Assembly (NCBI RefSeq): GCF_000712185.1
Contig: NZ_KL544019.1
Coordinates: forward strand, 198,956-262,955
Direction of reading: 5' to 3'
DNA: 64,000 nt
Source: Mycoplasmopsis opalescens ATCC 27921
Lineage (GTDB): Bacteria > Bacillota_I > Bacilli_A > Mycoplasmatales > Metamycoplasmataceae
Part shown: in pieces, positions 657 to 55,483 of the stretch
How the letters are laid out: each line of letters starts with the position of its first letter
How positions within the stretch are numbered: the stretch's first letter is position 1
Notes under the pieces: generated by a model
Seen by the model: only the letters and a program-made list of their open reading frames with translations
What the model was told of the DNA's origin: nothing
The model's database searches: none
Program-made: the position numbers and the translations under genes

Positions 657-1609
657 AAAAAACATTTATTTTTCGATAAATATTCAACACCTGCTGTAGT
701 TATTTTTCTTCCTCTACTATTCTTGGTAATTAGTTTTAAATGCAGTAATAATGGCTCTATTTCATACAAAATATTTTCTCTATCTATATTTAAAACTCCG
801 GCAATGCTATCTAAACTGGCAAATTTTTCAATAAAAGTATCATTTAATATTTTTAGATATTCTAAATGGTCTCTATTCAGACCTAAATCATATAATTCCA
901 AATGCAAAAACGTCTGTTTTACAGTATTTTTAGTAACAATCTCCTCTTTTTTTTCTATAGCAAAATCGCAAACTCTTTTTAGCAAATGATTAGCAACACG
1001 AGGTGTTGCTTTTGAGTAGCGTGCAATCAGATTTGTAACTCCTGCTTCAACATTTATGTTTAATTTTTCTTCAGAATTTTCTAGAATTTTAACAATATCA
1101 TACTCTTCATAATTGTTTACTCTAGCATGAAAACCAAAGCGATCTTTAAGTGGTTGAGATAATAAATTAAATTTAGTAGTAGCGCCAATTAATGTAAAGG
1201 GTTTGAGTTGCATTCTCATTACTCTTGAATTACCTTCAGGGCCAATGATTATATCTATTTTGTACTCCTCTAATGCAGAGTAAAGCAACTCTTCAACACT
1301 TTTATTAATTGAGTGAATTTCGTCAATAAAGACAATATCACCCTCACTTATGTTTGAAAAAACAGATAAAATATCACTTTTTTTGTCTAATAATACACCT
1401 TGTAAATAGTGAATTTTACTGCCTAATTCATTAGCTATAATTGTTGCTAGAGAGGTTTTTCCAAGCCCTGGTTGTCCATAAAAAAGTATATGATCTAAAG
1501 TTTCACTTCTGTGTCTTGCTCCTAAAATCATTGTTTTTAGGGTTGTAATAAGTCGCTCTTGACCGACAAATTCGGAAAAATTATTGGGTCGTAACTGTTG
1601 TAGGTTCAT
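647..1609 (-). CDS. ruvB: Holliday junction branch migration ATPase RuvB
   Basis: RuvB is the hexameric AAA+ motor that drives Holliday junction branch migration together with RuvA. The 320-residue protein has Walker A GQPGLGKTS at 45-53, Walker B IVFIDEIHS at 92-100, sensor I IGATTK at 141-146, an arginine finger region DRFGF near 156-160, and the sensor II segment TPRVANHLLKRV near 202-213. The C-terminal winged-helix part is present and the length fits the family. The start lies inside the 3' end of ruvA (29 bp overlap), so the two genes are translationally coupled. Confidence 0.96.
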   Translation of the reverse strand: MNLQQLRPNNFSEFVGQERLITTLKTMILGARHRSETLDHILFYGQPGLGKTSLATIIANELGSKIHYLQGVLLDKKSDILSVFSNISEGDIVFIDEIHSINKSVEELLYSALEEYKIDIIIGPEGNSRVMRMQLKPFTLIGATTKFNLLSQPLKDRFGFHARVNNYEEYDIVKILENSEEKLNINVEAGVTNLIARYSKATPRVANHLLKRVCDFAIEKKEEIVTKNTVKQTFLHLELYDLGLNRDHLEYLKILNDTFIEKFASLDSIAGVLNIDRENILYEIEPLLLHLKLITKNSRGRKITTAGVEYLSKNKCFLYS

Positions 1610-2189
1610 TTGGTTGAGACATCAATTTAATCGCTTGCTCTATCATAAGGTCAATATCATCATTAGGTTCGATATTATCTAATGCATTTTCAATCGACAT
1701 TTTTTTAAAACCTAAAACTTTTAAAGTTTCTCTAACTTGATTAAGTTTATAGCTTTTTCCTTTAGACAAATCTGTTTTGCTTATTTTATCACTGATCATT
1801 TTTGCTCATTTATCTTGTAATTCGACAATCACAGTGCGTGCTAATTTTGGATTAAAATATGGAATTTCTATTAATCCCTCTGTGTTTCCTGTTGCAATGT
1901 TCTGTGCTGTTTTCATCCAGCCTGAATTAACTAAATTAAAAGCAACCCTTGGTCCAATACCATTAATGCTAATAAGATCTATGAATAATAATCGTTCTTT
2001 AAAATCTAAAAATGCATATGTAGCTCGATAATAATCATTTTTAATTTCATATAAATATAATCTTAATTTTTCTTTTAAATTAACCCTATCTGGATCTGGC
2101 AAAATTAATGAATATCCAACATTTTGCGCTTCAAAAATAATATTAGAATTGTTTTTATAGGTGATTTCACCAACTCTATACAGTATCAT
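1581..2189 (-). CDS. ruvA: Holliday junction DNA-binding protein RuvA
   Basis: RuvA binds four-way junctions and loads RuvB. The 202-residue product begins MILYRVGEITYKNNSN (OB-fold), has a helix-hairpin-helix segment ISINGIGPRVAFNLVNSG, and a C-terminal helical domain ending EPTTVTTQ. A TGA at 1803-1805 is read as Trp after VELQDK, so a code-11 reading would wrongly split the gene. It overlaps ruvB by 29 bp and the order ruvA-ruvB is the standard one. Confidence 0.93.
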
Positions 2190-2301
2190 TATATCCTTTC
2201 AGGCACCTATTAATATGCCTAAAAAAATTTTAATTAAAACAAAATGCCAAAAATTCTATATTTTTCCTAATTTTTCCGTTTAAAAGTTAATAAAAGAAAT
2301 A

Positions 2302-50439: not shown

Positions 50440-51414
50440 ATGAAACAAGATTCAAATGTAGTTTTATTCGCTATGCCTAATTGCCAAAATTTAGGTAATG
50501 AAATTAGTGATATTGTTAAAATTCCTCTTTCACCAATTTCAAGAACTGTTTATGCCGATGGGGAAGCAATGTTAGTTAGTGAAGCTTGCGTTCGTGGTAA
50601 AGATACTTATGTGGTCGCTAGCACTCATATGCCGGTGAACCAAAACTTAATGGAACTTTTATTATTTGTTGATTCATTAAAAAGAGCTTCTGCTAAAACA
50701 ATTAATGTTGTTTTAAGTTATTATGGATATGCTCGTCAAGATAGAAAATCTTCAGGACGTCAACCAATCAGTGCAAAGTTAGTTGCAGGCCTATTAGAAA
50801 AAGCAGGGGTGCAAAAAATTATTGCTGTTGATTTACATAACCCAGCTATTCAAGGATTTTTCGATATTCCAGTAGATGACTTAAGAGGGGCTTACACCTT
50901 AGCTAAAAGAATTCGCGAAAGTAAAGATCGTTTCACGGTTGTTTCACCAGACCATGGAGGAACAATTCGCGCACGTAAATTAGCTGAATTAATAGCTAAT
51001 ACAGTAAAAATAGCTATTATTGATAAACGTCGTACAGGCGCAAACCAAGCAGAGGCTATGGGTTTAATTGGTGATGTTAAAGGCCAAAATGTTGTGATTA
51101 TAGATGATATTATTGATACCGGAGGTACAATAATCAAAGCCGTTAATACGTTAAAAGAAAACGGAGCTAAAAAAGTTATAGTTGCAGCCACTCACGGACT
51201 ATTTACGAAAGGCTTTGAAATGTTTGAAGAAAATCCAAACATAGAAAAAGTTATAATTACTGACTCCATTGATCATTCAGACATGATAAATAGATTCACT
51301 AAGCTAGATGTTGTTTCATTAGGTTTCTTCCTTGGAAATGTTATTTTAGCTTCAATTGAAGGACGTTCAATTTCTTCGCTTTATGAAGAATTTGAATCTG
51401 AAATTAAATGTTAA
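50440..51414 (+). CDS. prs: Ribose-phosphate pyrophosphokinase (PRPP synthetase)
   Basis: Prs makes PRPP from ribose-5-phosphate and ATP for nucleotide salvage. The 324-residue class I enzyme has SYYGYARQDRKSSGRQPISAKLVA, VDLHNPAIQGFFDIPVDD, VVSPDHGGTIRARKLAE, and the PRPP loop VVIIDDIIDTGGTI. The start is ATG at 50440 with TAGGAG upstream; a TATAAT box is at 50406-50411. Its 3' end overlaps rsmG by 7 bp. Confidence 0.96.
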   Translation: MKQDSNVVLFAMPNCQNLGNEISDIVKIPLSPISRTVYADGEAMLVSEACVRGKDTYVVASTHMPVNQNLMELLLFVDSLKRASAKTINVVLSYYGYARQDRKSSGRQPISAKLVAGLLEKAGVQKIIAVDLHNPAIQGFFDIPVDDLRGAYTLAKRIRESKDRFTVVSPDHGGTIRARKLAELIANTVKIAIIDKRRTGANQAEAMGLIGDVKGQNVVIIDDIIDTGGTIIKAVNTLKENGAKKVIVAATHGLFTKGFEMFEENPNIEKVIITDSIDHSDMINRFTKLDVVSLGFFLGNVILASIEGRSISSLYEEFESEIKC

Positions 51415-52085
51415 ATTTAGATGAAAATGATAAATTATCTACATATACCAATTTGATTTTTGAAGGCAATCAAAAATCAAATTTAACTGGCTATAAAAAT
51501 CACGAAGATATCTATAAACAAGGCATTTTAGACTCAATCCTTATTCGTAAAACTCTAGAAAATAATGGTTATGATTTTCTGGATAAAACTATTTTAGACA
51601 TAGGTGCAGGAGCAGGTTTTCCCTCTATGCCTTGAAAAATTTACAATGATAATTTTAATTTGGAAATTGTTGAATCCTTAGGTAAAAGAGTTAATTTCCT
51701 TAAAAATATAACAACTGAATTAAATTTATCTGTTAATGTTTTTAATGAACGAGTTGAAAGGCTAAAAAATAGAAATTGTTATTATGATTTAATCACAGCC
51801 AGAGCAGTAACTAGTGTTAAAAATTTATTTATGCTTGCTCACCACTTGCTAAAACCTAATGGATTTTTTATCATGCCTAAGGGTAGAAATTATAAGCAAG
51901 AACTCAAAGAAATCTCTCATATTTTTCCTGAAATAAAAAAAGATATTAAAGTCTTTTCATATATTAATTCACAAAATGATGAATCCTATATTATAGTTAT
52001 CCAAAAAACGACCAAAACACCTGTAAAATGGCCTTTTGAGTGAAAAAAAATAATGTCTTTTGGCGTTAATAAATTGCCACAATAA
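51408..52085 (+). CDS. rsmG: 16S rRNA (guanine527-N7)-methyltransferase
   Basis: RsmG (GidB) makes m7G527 near the decoding site. The 225-residue protein has ILDSILIRKTLENNG, motif I ILDIGAGAGFPSMPWKI, the conserved LEIVESLGKRVNFLK, RAVTSVKNLFMLAHHLLKPNG and MPKGRNYKQEL. TGA at 51633-51635 and 52040-52042 are Trp. It overlaps prs by 7 bp and is the last gene before a terminator. Confidence 0.94.
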
Positions 52086-52117
52086 TTAATTATTAACTAT
52101 TTAAAAATAATAAATTG

Positions 52118-52147
52118 TCTATTTTTTTCCAAAAATAGATTTTTTTT
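52118..52147 (+). terminator. Terminator of the prs-rsmG unit
   Basis: TCTATTTTT/AAAAATAGA with a four-base loop is followed by eight T. Confidence 0.85.
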
Positions 52148-52181: not shown

Positions 52182-52535
52182 ATGAATGACATAAAAATAG
52201 AAAGCAAAAACATGAATACAACAGAATTAAAACATTTAATAATTAGGTTATGTAAAGAAGAAATGAAGCGACAAAGCTTGATTAAAAAGGAATTTTTAAC
52301 GAAATGTATTAAAGAGAGCAGGTTAAATAATGATGAAAAATTAGTTATACCGCCATCTAAGCTAACAAGATCAATAAATTATCTTAAGCCTGCTTACAAA
52401 GAAATAATTATTAATGAATTTTATAAACCTAAATCCGATAAATATTGATATGAAGACAAATATTGTCGAGCAACATTTTATAAATATAGAAATGAAGCAA
52501 TGAAGGACTTAGTTAACATATATGTTTCTAGTTAA
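52182..52535 (+). CDS. Small HTH-like protein heading a three-gene cassette
   Basis: The 117-residue basic protein begins MNDIKIESKNMNTTELKHL behind GGAGG. Its C-terminal half (LKPAYKEIIINEFYKP, then KYWYEDKYCRATFYKYRNEAMKDL) resembles sigma-region-4 or ArpU/MG284-like helix-turn-helix segments, where a WY-E-YxRxTFYKxRxEA pattern is common in mollicute small proteins. This is my reading, not a search result. The TGA at 52446-52448 is Trp. Its stop lies 14 bp inside the next gene, so the two are coupled. A regulatory role is possible. Confidence 0.6.
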
Positions 52536-54018
52536 TAATGTTGCCAATAATGCCCAAACACAGGCTTTTTCGTCACAAAACATTTATAAATTTGAAGCTT
52601 CAAAAAGATATGCAAATAAGGATAAAAGCAATATAAATATTGAACCCATAATAGGTAAAGATCAGAATAATGAAATAAAAAATGAAGTTGTTTTAGAACC
52701 CTATACCTTTGAAGTTCAAAATATTTCAGTATTTGATAAACCCAATACAACTAAAGATTTTGTTGAACCAATTGAGTATCTTCCGCATGAATCACCAGAT
52801 GTTATTTTAAGAGCAAGGGCAGAAATTATAAAGTATTTTGGGAGCGATGAATTTAATATAGTTATAACTTATAGTGTACCAATTCATGAAAAGCATCTTA
52901 AAGATAGTGATTATACAGAGTCTATAGTTGTTAATGATAAATTATTGCAACCAAACCAGTTTAAGAAGTTAGCTTATTCATATTATTTTCCGGAAGATTA
53001 CGAAGGAGCAAAAGATAATAATGGATTTAACTTTTTCAGCTACCCTGATTATCCAAATGTAAAATGAGATAAGTTTAAATTTCACCATATATTGATTTCT
53101 AGCCGCACATTAGGAATAAAATTTCAAGATTTTGATAATTTAGTTTTGACTGTTGGAATTAATGAAAGTGAAAACATTCCACGGTCAATTATGGTTAAAA
53201 AACATAATAATAAACCATCTTTAATCTCTAAAGAATTTATCAAAAATAAAGCAAGTATTAAAATACCATATTACTATTCTTTTGACTTTGACTATTATTC
53301 TAATCCAGAAACCAAAGTCAAAAGAAGAGTTGGATATTTAAACAACGAACTAACTTCATTTAATATTGATAATAAATCAACTACAAATAAACTATTTAAT
53401 TTAAAAAGCACGCAAGATGATTATCCATTTAAAAAAGCCACTGAAGCAGTAATTAAATCAGCCGTTGTTTATCACAATATTTACGGGGCATTTCACCGAA
53501 ACCAAAGTACACCAAATTATGGGATTTTAGCGATGAAAAGTACAGCATTTGAAACACTAGGAAATATTGGAGTTTATAGAGAAAATATCAATAATATTTT
53601 TGAATCACGAATGGCTGAATTTAACTTTTACTCTAATGATAGGCTAGTTTATGACGCAACTAGCAAACAAATGGTCAAGGGTCATGCTGATAAAGCGGGA
53701 TTAAAAATATCACCTGCATTTAGTGGTAAATATTGAAATGATGTTATTTTTTATTATCAACCAAGTAAAGATGCAGAACCATATTTAATTAATTTTTCGA
53801 ATTCATATTCAATTGAAAAACCAATACTTGATCCGCAAAATGGAATGGTACAGTTGAATTATAAGGTTAATGATGCGAAATTAGACCACAATAATAATGG
53901 AATTGTCGCCTTAAATGATAAATTTATTTCACTAAACGAGGAAGATATCAAAAGATTATTAACATTTAAAATTTCAAACTACAATGAATTAGAAACGTAT
54001 AGGGTTAATAATGAATAA
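52522..54018 (+). CDS. Unknown 498-residue protein, middle gene of the cassette
   Basis: The frame runs from ATG 52522 to TAA 54016-54018, with TGA-Trp at 53065-53067 and 53734-53736. No signal peptide, lipobox or membrane helix is clear; the N terminus is MFLVNNVANNAQTQAFSSQN. It is rich in Asn, Tyr, Asp and Ser with predicted beta strands (FNIVITYSVPI, LVLTVGINE, VQLNYKVND), like the extracytoplasmic domains of mycoplasma surface proteins. I recognise no family. It overlaps its neighbours by 14 and 8 bp, so three genes act as one unit. Confidence 0.72.
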
Positions 54019-54559
54019 AAGAAATAAATTAATTTTAGGTATATCCTTGGGAATTGTTATTGCCTCAGCCATAGCAGTACCAATTACGGTTGTATCATTA
54101 AAGAAAAAAAACGAAGATAAAGATTTAACTAAAGATAACAACCATAAAAAAATAAAAATAAAATATGACCGTAATGGAAATAAAATAGGTGAATTTTTAG
54201 TTCCGGACGACAATAAAAATGACCAAAATAACAATAATACAGGCAAAAAAGGAACAAATTCTTCAATAGAAGAAATCATAGAATACGAAGGAGCCACATA
54301 CGATGATGTTTTTCCTGAAATTAAAAAACCTGAAGTATACAATTTCATTAATTATGAAAATTCAGAACCAAAAATTAGCAAGGAAATTGTTTATTTCATC
54401 GTTAATAAAATAGCCAAACATGTTCAAGTTCCACTACTAAAAATAGATGTAGAAGATAATTGATCAGACGATGATAAGACATTAAAATTAGTAGTTAAAG
54501 TAAAAACAAAAGGGAACACATTAACAAGAACTTATCATTTTACAGTTTTAAACCAATAG
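54011..54559 (+). CDS. Single-pass membrane protein, last gene of the cassette
   Basis: The 182-residue protein has one N-terminal membrane helix (LILGISLGIVIASAIAVPITVVSL) after MNKRNK. A charged Asn/Asp/Lys-rich linker follows (NHKKIKIKYDRNG, DDNKNDQNNNNTGKK) and then a compact C-terminal domain of about 90 residues ending TRTYHFTVLNQ. There is no lipobox Cys. The topology suggests an N-in anchor with an outside domain. It overlaps the 498-residue gene by 8 bp, so the two may form a surface complex. Confidence 0.72.
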
Positions 54560-54579: not shown

Positions 54580-55398
54580 ATGAAATTAGAAAATATTAAA
54601 ATGGTATTTATCGATCTTGATGGAACTTCACTTGATAAAAAAAGAAGAGGTCAAAGGTATTTATCGCATGAAAATATCGAAGCAATTGAAGAATGCAGAC
54701 AAAATGGAATTGAAGTAATTGTTTCAACTGGCAGAGGTATAAATAGTCGAACAGATAAAATTCTTAGCCAACTCAATGACCATAAAAATTTAGTTGCTTG
54801 AAATGGTGCAAAAATTAAATTAGATAATAAAATAATTAAGTCAACAGCTATTGAAAAAGAAGTTGTAACTGATATTTTAGAAAAATCAGAAAAAAATAAA
54901 TTAGTTATGGTGCTAAACTCTGATTTTAGACATTTAACTATTACAAAAAGTTTAATAACCAGAATGATTATTAAATTAAAAGGTGGTAAACGCCTAAAAC
55001 CTGAAAATCTTGATTTAAATAAAGAAATTTTCAAAGTCATATTATGATCGAAAAACACAAAAAAATTACATGAAGTAATTGACTATTTAAAAAATAAATA
55101 TAACGATAAAATCAATATTATTACAGGTGATAGCCACGCTACATATTTTGAAATAACAGCAATAGATGCATCTAAGGGTTTAGCTAATAAGTTATTCGCT
55201 GAAATGAAAAATATAGATTTAGACAAATGCGTCCACATCGGTGATTCAATGAATGATGCAAGCACAGCTAAATATTTTAAAAATGTTATAGCTATGAAAA
55301 ATGCAGATAATGATTTTAAAAAAGTTGCTTCAATAGTCAGTGAGTTTGAATATAAAAATGGCGGTTTAGCTAAAACAATAAAAAAATATATTCTATAA
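54580..55398 (+). CDS. Cof-type HAD-family hydrolase
   Basis: The 272-residue protein is a HAD phosphatase of the Cof subfamily. Motif I MVFIDLDGTSLD has the nucleophile Asp near residue 12, motif II is VIVSTGRG, and a C2B cap follows. KGLANKLFAEM holds the conserved Lys and HIGDSMNDASTAKYF is motif IV. Such enzymes dephosphorylate sugar phosphates, FMN or nucleotides; the substrate cannot be named. TGA at 54799-54801 and 55045-55047 are Trp. It follows the unknown cassette by 20 bp. Confidence 0.92.
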
Positions 55399-55437: not shown

Positions 55438-55444
55438 AATTAAT

Positions 55445-55479
55445 AAAAAAATACAACATTTATTAAGTTGTATTTTTTT
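55445..55479. terminator. Bidirectional terminator between HAD gene and secA
   Basis: A 13-bp perfect stem AAAAAAATACAAC/GTTGTATTTTTTT with a nine-base loop lies between the convergent genes. Confidence 0.9.
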
Positions 55480-55483
55480 ATTA

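What the first reader, a model, noticed from the sequence alone, without database searches (positions are those of the whole stretch)
52182..54559. Three-gene overlapping cassette of unknown function: HTH-like, 498-residue and single-pass membrane proteins
The genes overlap by 14 and 8 bp and sit between two terminated housekeeping units, so they form a dedicated operon. The first product looks DNA-binding, the third is membrane-anchored with an outer domain, and the second is a beta-rich protein with no recognised family or export signal. This could be a membrane signalling or surface assembly system not yet described.
Basis: partly seen in the sequence, partly recalled or inferred. Interest (0 to 1): 0.6.

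Follow-up and report, generated by a model that had tools for sequence, protein, structure and literature searches.

The report
Conserved mycoplasma trio linked to DNA uptake
A three-gene block (a DNA-binding protein, a protein of unknown role and a membrane protein) is kept together from this mycoplasma to Mycoplasma genitalium, and in related species it shares a DNA control element with the genes for DNA uptake and recombination, so it is probably part of an undescribed genetic-exchange programme.

Summary
In detail: with genetic code 4, three genes of 117, 498 and 182 aa overlap by 14 and 8 bp. Each matches an NCBI family of unknown function above its cut-off (MG284/MPN403, MHO_1580, MHO_1590). 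The trio is an old block: it occurs intact in 94 of the loci read, in five families of Mycoplasmatales, including the MG284-MG285-MG286 locus of a genome the size of M. genitalium. Profile comparison joins families that carry different names today (MHO_1580 with MG285/DUF5443, MHO_1590 with MG286/DUF5452).

A has an ArpU/RinA-type (sigma region 4-like) helix-turn-helix. C is a one-pass membrane protein with a small outer domain.

The new result is a DNA element upstream of the trio in Mycoplasmopsis and related genera, GGAAAAA-N7-TTTTTCC with a further half-site 11 bp on. The same element lies upstream of recA, ruvAB, recU, dprA, comEA-comEC and a C39-peptidase exporter. In the window's own genome the trio shares TCTATTTTTTTCC with the exporter. 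The trio is therefore a predicted member of a competence/recombination regulon, a type not described in mycoplasmas in the held literature. Regulon membership is well supported; A as its regulator and the roles of B and C are inferred.

The parts
52182..52535 (+). gene A, 117 aa, MG284/MPN403-family protein; predicted DNA-binding regulator
   Evidence: ORF with code 4; NF045770 E 8.5e-13, 48.1 bits, cut-off 37.3
52365..52523 (+). ArpU/RinA / sigma region 4-like helix-turn-helix of A (residues 62-114)
   Evidence: NF045770 match range; relatives match phrog_248 (12 of 15 members, best 5.6e-6) and TIGR01637 ArpU (7 of 15, best 1.9e-4)
52522..54018 (+). gene B, 498 aa, MHO_1580-family protein, no signal peptide or membrane segment
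   Evidence: NF045960 E 7.6e-22; hydropathy; profile link to DUF5443/MG285
54011..54559 (+). gene C, 182 aa, MHO_1590-family protein, N-in single-pass membrane protein
   Evidence: NF045957 E 2.7e-13; topology
54029..54085 (+). membrane segment of C (about residues 7-25)
   Evidence: hydropathy maximum at residue 7
54308..54544 (+). outer alpha/beta domain of C (residues 100-178)
   Evidence: AlphaFold2 block pLDDT 87-96; NF045957 match 100-178
52118..52130 (+). TCTATTTTTTTCC: half-site(s) of the putative competence/recombination element, 51 nt before the start of A; overlaps the rsmG terminator stem
   Evidence: identical 13-mer upstream of the C39 exporter in the own genome
52117..52140 (+). 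intrinsic-terminator hairpin of the upstream rsmG unit
   Evidence: fold z -4.15 followed by T-run
51408..52085 (+). upstream neighbour rsmG
   Evidence: TIGR00138 E 3.7e-44
54580..55398 (+). downstream Cof-type HAD phosphatase, 20 bp after C, probably co-transcribed in this clade
55441..55483 (+). terminator hairpin after the HAD gene
   Evidence: fold z -6.95
2247..2277 (.). second copy of the element in this window, upstream of ruvA (1581-2189, minus strand): GGAAAAATTAGGAAAAATATAGAATTTTTGG read on the ruvA strand

Best explanation
The trio is an operon of a competence/recombination regulon. A is a small DNA-binding regulator with a sigma region 4-like helix-turn-helix. It probably binds the GGAAAAA/TTTTTCC half-sites upstream of its own operon, and perhaps those upstream of the other genes of the set. 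B and C are the effector pair. C is anchored in the membrane with its small alpha/beta domain outside; B works with C. They are made together with RecA, RuvAB, RecU, DprA, ComEA-ComEC and the C39-peptidase exporter, so they most likely serve DNA uptake or exchange at the membrane. Shown here: the block, its conservation and orthology, the domain types, the shared DNA element in relatives and a partial copy in this genome. Inferred: that the element works as an operator, that A binds it, and what B and C do.
For: Block: 94 intact trios in families f1, f3, f4, f5 and f8, genes abutting or overlapping, in several different neighbourhoods: proS/acp, rsmG/HAD, tsaD and others. Orthology: f1 versus f3 profiles A E 3.5e-15, B E 5.9e-5, C E 8.1e-10; none of 100 column shuffles reached any of the scores. 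A: ArpU/RinA/sigma-like matches. C: N-side more positive in 85 of 94. Element: direct-repeat score of 14 or more upstream of A in 25 of 68 f1 loci versus 12 of 258 other ORFs, p 5e-11; palindrome score of 12 or more in 7 of 68 versus 0 of 258. The 17-mer TTTTTCCYANTTTTTTC has about 77 hits in 119 genomes against 6 for the reversed control. Of about 55 distinct intergenic hits read, 36 lie upstream of recU 9, ruvA 7, trio 6, recA 5, comEA 3, dprA 3, C39 exporter 2, recD-like 1 (identities). The palindrome has about 47 hits against 2 control hits in 61 genomes. In four genomes 16 of 22 palindromes precede trio (4), comEA (4), C39 exporter (4), dprA (2), recA (2). Own genome: TCTATTTTTTTCC precedes both trio and C39 exporter, near-copies precede comEA and recA, and the ruvA box is in this window. 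B-C persist where A is lost or truncated (G033, G104, G184; probably G226), so B-C act on their own. In one genome B, C39 and dprA are broken while recA and ruvAB are intact.
Against: In this genome the trio has only one clear half-site, inside the rsmG terminator stem; T-rich sequence makes short matches cheap, and in a leave-one-out test the trio site ranks only 18th of 127,962 window positions. Many genomes show no element at this stringency (82 of 119). The trio persists in M. genitalium, whose known recombination regulon uses another promoter, not found upstream of MG284. Solitary A copies behind proS carry no element. No binding or expression data exist. The g4 hits come from close relatives and are not independent.
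Confidence: 0.5

Rival explanations
1. Sensor-regulator circuit: C senses an outside signal (for example a peptide cleaved and exported by the C39 transporter), B relays it, A switches the regulon on, in the manner of comCDE/comAB of pneumococcus but built from unrelated proteins.
For: The element precedes both the trio and the C39-peptidase exporter, as in a pheromone loop. A 91-aa peptide with a double-glycine-like leader (LVKLSEKDKTENGG) carries the element in G043 (L257). In Ureaplasma-like genomes the trio lies beside the C39 exporter (L097). Metamycoplasma has an A'-B' pair without C.
Against: B-C survive in genomes with no A, which a pure A-sensing role would not predict. The C39 exporter also occurs widely in families without the trio. 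No signal peptide-receptor pair was found.
Confidence: 0.2
2. B-C are an envelope or housekeeping complex without a role in DNA exchange, and the upstream element is a general T-rich promoter or terminator feature.
For: Ancestral neighbours are housekeeping genes, proS and acp. The element overlaps a terminator here. The trio is nearly universal in f1, including genomes without the element.
Against: The reversed-pattern control is 10 to 20 times rarer, and the genes behind the element are overwhelmingly recombination and competence genes.
Confidence: 0.25
3. Remnant of a phage or contractile-tail module: A like phage late activators ArpU/RinA, C like baseplate protein gp25/TssE.
For: A matches phage activator profiles; the best fold matches of C are T4 gp25, a gp25-like protein and TssE.
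Against: Fold Z 5.9 at most, within the noise range stated by the tool; Foldseek E not below 0.04. gp25/TssE have no membrane anchor. No phage genes in the neighbourhoods read; distribution is vertical and nearly universal.
Confidence: 0.05

Closest known systems
MG284-MG285-MG286 of M. genitalium (NF045770; Pfam DUF5443 and DUF5452)
   Same: Same gene order, similar sizes, same tight packing; A in the same family by sequence; B and C joined by profile comparison
   Different: B and C too diverged for sequence-level Pfam hits; different neighbourhood; the element is not seen there
MHO_1580 and MHO_1590 families (NCBIfam NF045960, NF045957)
   Same: B and C are members above cut-off
   Different: The families are catalogued separately, with no function and no link to A
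ArpU/RinA late transcription activators (TIGR01637, TIGR01636, phrog_248)
   Same: HTH with the SxSTYYRxxxxAxxxFL signature
   Different: Not phage-borne; linked to B and C; the window protein alone scores only E 0.024
Competence regulons of Gram-positive bacteria (ComK box; ComE/ComX boxes)
   Same: One element in front of recA, dprA, comEA-comEC, C39 exporter; a palindrome of A-run and T-run half-sites recalls AAAA-N5-TTTT of ComK (from memory)
   Different: No comK, comX or comG-type genes were found or tested; the trio is in the set instead
Sigma-20 (MG428) recombination regulon of M. genitalium
   Same: Controls recA and ruvAB (PMC9262362)
   Different: Promoter-type element (from memory TTGTCA-N18/19-ATTWAT), not found upstream of MG284; here a TF-like palindrome

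Membership tests
NCBIfam MG284/MPN403, MHO_1580, MHO_1590 | score above the curated cut-off | tested here: met
   48.1/37.3, 78.1/43, 50/42 bits
DUF5443 / DUF5452 (MG285 / MG286) | Pfam sequence-level match | tested here: not met
   no Pfam hit for B or C of the window; M. genitalium-type proteins hit at E 1.6e-184 and 9.8e-81
DUF5443 / DUF5452 (MG285 / MG286) | profile-level homology in the same operon position | tested here: met
   0 of 100 shuffles
ArpU/RinA activators | sequence match over the family cut-off | tested here: inconclusive
   relatives E 1.9e-4 to 5.6e-6, window protein E 0.024
ArpU/RinA activators | activates phage packaging/lysis promoters | not testable with these tools
   no phage genes in the neighbourhoods read; activity needs the bench
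Sigma-70 family factor | regions 2 and 4 | tested here: not met
   A is 117 aa with only a region-4-like part; the sigma family search of the own genome hits other loci
Competence/recombination regulon | shared upstream element with com/rec genes | tested here: met
   in relatives:
Competence/recombination regulon | same element at the trio and com/rec genes of the window's own genome | tested here: inconclusive
   TCTATTTTTTTCC shared with the C39 exporter; near-copies at comEA, recA, ruvA
Competence/recombination regulon | co-expression and DNA uptake phenotype | not testable with these tools
   needs RNA-seq and knock-outs
Sigma-20 regulon of M. genitalium | TTGTCA-N18/19-ATTWAT promoter upstream of MG284 | tested here: not met
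   consensus recalled from memory
gp25/TssE baseplate proteins | fold | tested here: inconclusive
   best Z 5.9

The most novel reading that the evidence does not exclude
Mycoplasmas have a natural-competence programme controlled by a peptide signal: the C39 exporter releases a cleaved peptide, C-B sense it at the membrane, and A, a minimal sigma-like activator, switches on the trio itself, recA, ruvAB, recU, dprA and comEA-comEC through GGAAAAA-N7-TTTTTCC boxes.
Probability: 0.12. Interest if true: 0.85.

Novelty: new variant of a known kind. Interest (0 to 1): 0.6.

Why it matters
[quoted passage not shown] A shared control element in front of the recombination, DprA, ComEA-ComEC and exporter genes, with three linked unknown genes in the set, gives a concrete regulon to test. 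It also gives a role hypothesis for three unknown gene families kept even in one of the smallest known genomes.

Tried and rejected
Structure of B: AlphaFold2 with a 5-row alignment gave pLDDT 38, unusable, so no fold search was made with it. Fold of C: middling matches to gp25/TssE and pantothenate synthetase, not significant. PDB sequence searches for A and B: nothing. One alignment row in A1 was a sequence composed by mistake; A1 was discarded and not used. A2 had no stretch conserved enough for the collection scan; A3 gave only five loci. Sigma-20 promoter upstream of MG284: none. C39-exporter co-occurrence with the trio: uninformative, the exporter is more widespread. Exact palindrome in the own genome: none. 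Best own-genome site with the direct-repeat pattern (G000:C6:109648, near dnaB-like genes) has no clear target; the cysS site is coding sequence. Hits inside ffh and ribosomal-protein genes are coding artefacts. Literature: no paper on the function of any of the trio's names in the held library.

Full report
What is there. The window is from a mycoplasma that reads TGA as tryptophan. With code 4 the three ORFs are A 52182-52535, B 52522-54018 and C 54011-54559, overlapping by 14 and 8 nt. All three hit NCBIfam families of unknown function above the curated cut-offs: MG284/MPN403 C-terminal domain, MHO_1580 and MHO_1590; Pfam has no hit. Upstream, rsmG ends with a terminator hairpin at 52117-52140. 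Downstream, the Cof-type HAD gene starts 20 bp after C and the terminator comes after that gene (55441-55483), so the unit is probably A-B-C-HAD.

How far the block reaches. In 248 genomes of the order, MHO_1590 is found above cut-off in all 79 genomes of family f1, MHO_1580 in 65-66 of them, and the MG284 domain in 152 genomes of f1, f3, f4, f5, f8 and a few others. Reading the loci shows intact A-B-C trios in 94 of them: 56 f1, 34 f3, 2 f5, 1 f4, 1 f8. A is about 95-205 aa as called (often with an over-long start), B 290-500 aa, C 120-225 aa with one N-terminal membrane segment, nearly always overlapping or abutting. One of them is in a 580,076-base genome, the size of M. genitalium G37 (from memory), with the order proS-A-B-C-acp (L104); its B and C are full-length matches to Pfam DUF5443 and DUF5452, so this is taken to be MG284-MG285-MG286.

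Orthology. Profile-profile comparison of f1 with f3 gave A E 3.5e-15, B E 5.9e-5 (collinear, C-terminal YD...G.IP...G motif) and C E 8.1e-10; no score was reached by any of 100 column-shuffled controls, and the cross-comparisons of different genes gave nothing. MHO_1580 and DUF5443, and MHO_1590 and DUF5452, are therefore parts of the same two families. The ancestral place seems to be proS-A-B-C-acp; the window's clade has rsmG-A-B-C-HAD; others lie behind tsaD and elsewhere. Genomes of the window's genus with a moved trio keep a second, solitary A behind proS (10 of 11 loci; own copy G000:C7:37258). Some genera keep A alone. Three genomes (G033, G104, G184) keep B-C with A lost or without its HTH, and a fourth (G226) appears to have a truncated A.

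The proteins. A: relatives match phage activator phrog_248 (12 of 15 members, best 5.6e-6), ArpU (7 of 15, best 1.9e-4) and RinA, the sigma region 4-like HTH type. C: N-side more positive in 85 of 94 proteins, so N-in and C-out; the outer domain is predicted well (block pLDDT 87-96, strands and one helix), with no significant fold match. B: soluble in nearly all; in two outlying families B starts with a signal-peptide-like stretch (L093, L105), which hints that B may act outside there. The model of B failed.

The control element. Comparing the DNA in front of A showed a T-rich direct repeat with 11-bp spacing, TTTTTCCYANTTTTTTCC, enriched over other ORFs (25 of 68 versus 12 of 258, p 5e-11). 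The 17-base core has about 77 hits in 119 f1 genomes against 6 for the reversed pattern. Excluding hits inside genes, about 55 sites remain among those read; 36 are upstream, same strand, of recU (9), ruvA (7), trio A (6), recA (5), comEA (3), dprA (3), C39-peptidase exporter (2) and a RecD-like helicase (1) (identities by NCBIfam and Pfam). The sites then showed a second half on the left: GGAAAAA-N7-TTTTTCC. This palindrome has about 47 hits against 2 control hits in 61 genomes of the genus. In the four genomes G160, G230, G232 and G178 there are 22, of which 16 lie in front of the trio (4), comEA-comEC (4), the C39 exporter (4), dprA (2) and recA (2).

In the window's own genome the exact palindrome is absent, but comEA and recA exist, and TCTATTTTTTTCC occurs before the trio and before the C39 exporter, with near-copies before comEA and recA. 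ruvA in this window has GGAAAAATTAGGAAAAATATAGAATTTTTGG (2247-2277). A matrix from the exporter, comEA and recA sites ranks the ruvA site 2nd and the trio site 18th of 127,962 positions in the window. So the own-genome evidence agrees but is weaker than that from relatives.

Reading. The trio belongs with the DNA uptake and recombination genes. A is the natural candidate for binding the element; an unknown factor, or a sigma-20-like factor present in some of these genomes, is not excluded. Because B-C survive without A, they are taken as effectors rather than as a mere sensing arm. In G160, B, the C39 exporter and dprA are all disrupted relative to the sister G230 while recA and ruvAB are intact, as expected if the set decays together, though two other genes near these loci are broken too. 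[quoted passage not shown] the M. genitalium sigma-20 regulon covers recA and ruvAB (PMC9262362) but is not linked to the trio by any paper in the held library, and its promoter was not found before MG284.

Limits. No expression, binding or phenotype data. The element is T-rich in an AT-rich genome. Hits in genus g4 are from close relatives. B has no structure.

Noticed in passing
window 2247-2277, upstream of ruvA (1581-2189, minus strand): A copy of the GGAAAAA/TTTTTCC element in front of ruvAB in this same window.
   Followed up: yes
L092 5049-5423 (G000:C7:37258): A solitary second copy of gene A directly behind proS, about 5 kb downstream of the C39-peptidase exporter of the own genome; no element in front of it.
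   Followed up: partly
L100 2034-3732, L101, L115, L117, L158: Metamycoplasma-like genomes carry a second A'-B' pair without C, behind inorganic pyrophosphatase in several.
   Followed up: partly
L340 1557-2225, L345 1567-2241: A 222-224 aa protein of no known family, divergent from mnmE, has the palindromic element in two genomes: a possible further regulon member.
   Followed up: partly
L257 809-1081: 91-aa protein with a double-glycine-like leader and the element upstream; possible substrate of the C39 exporter.
   Followed up: partly
L287 1501 (G000:C6:109648): Best match to the direct-repeat element in the own genome lies between coaE and dnaB-like genes with no clear target gene.
   Followed up: partly
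L353, L354: A different palindrome GGAAAAAATCTTATTTTTTCCGCAAAAT precedes a family of repeated surface-protein-like genes in two genomes.
   Followed up: no
L093 5214, L105 5315: In two outlying families B begins with a signal-peptide-like segment, unlike in all others.
   Followed up: no
L094, L104, L110, L152, L170: An acyl carrier protein gene follows C in many genomes (ancestral order proS-A-B-C-acp).
   Followed up: partly
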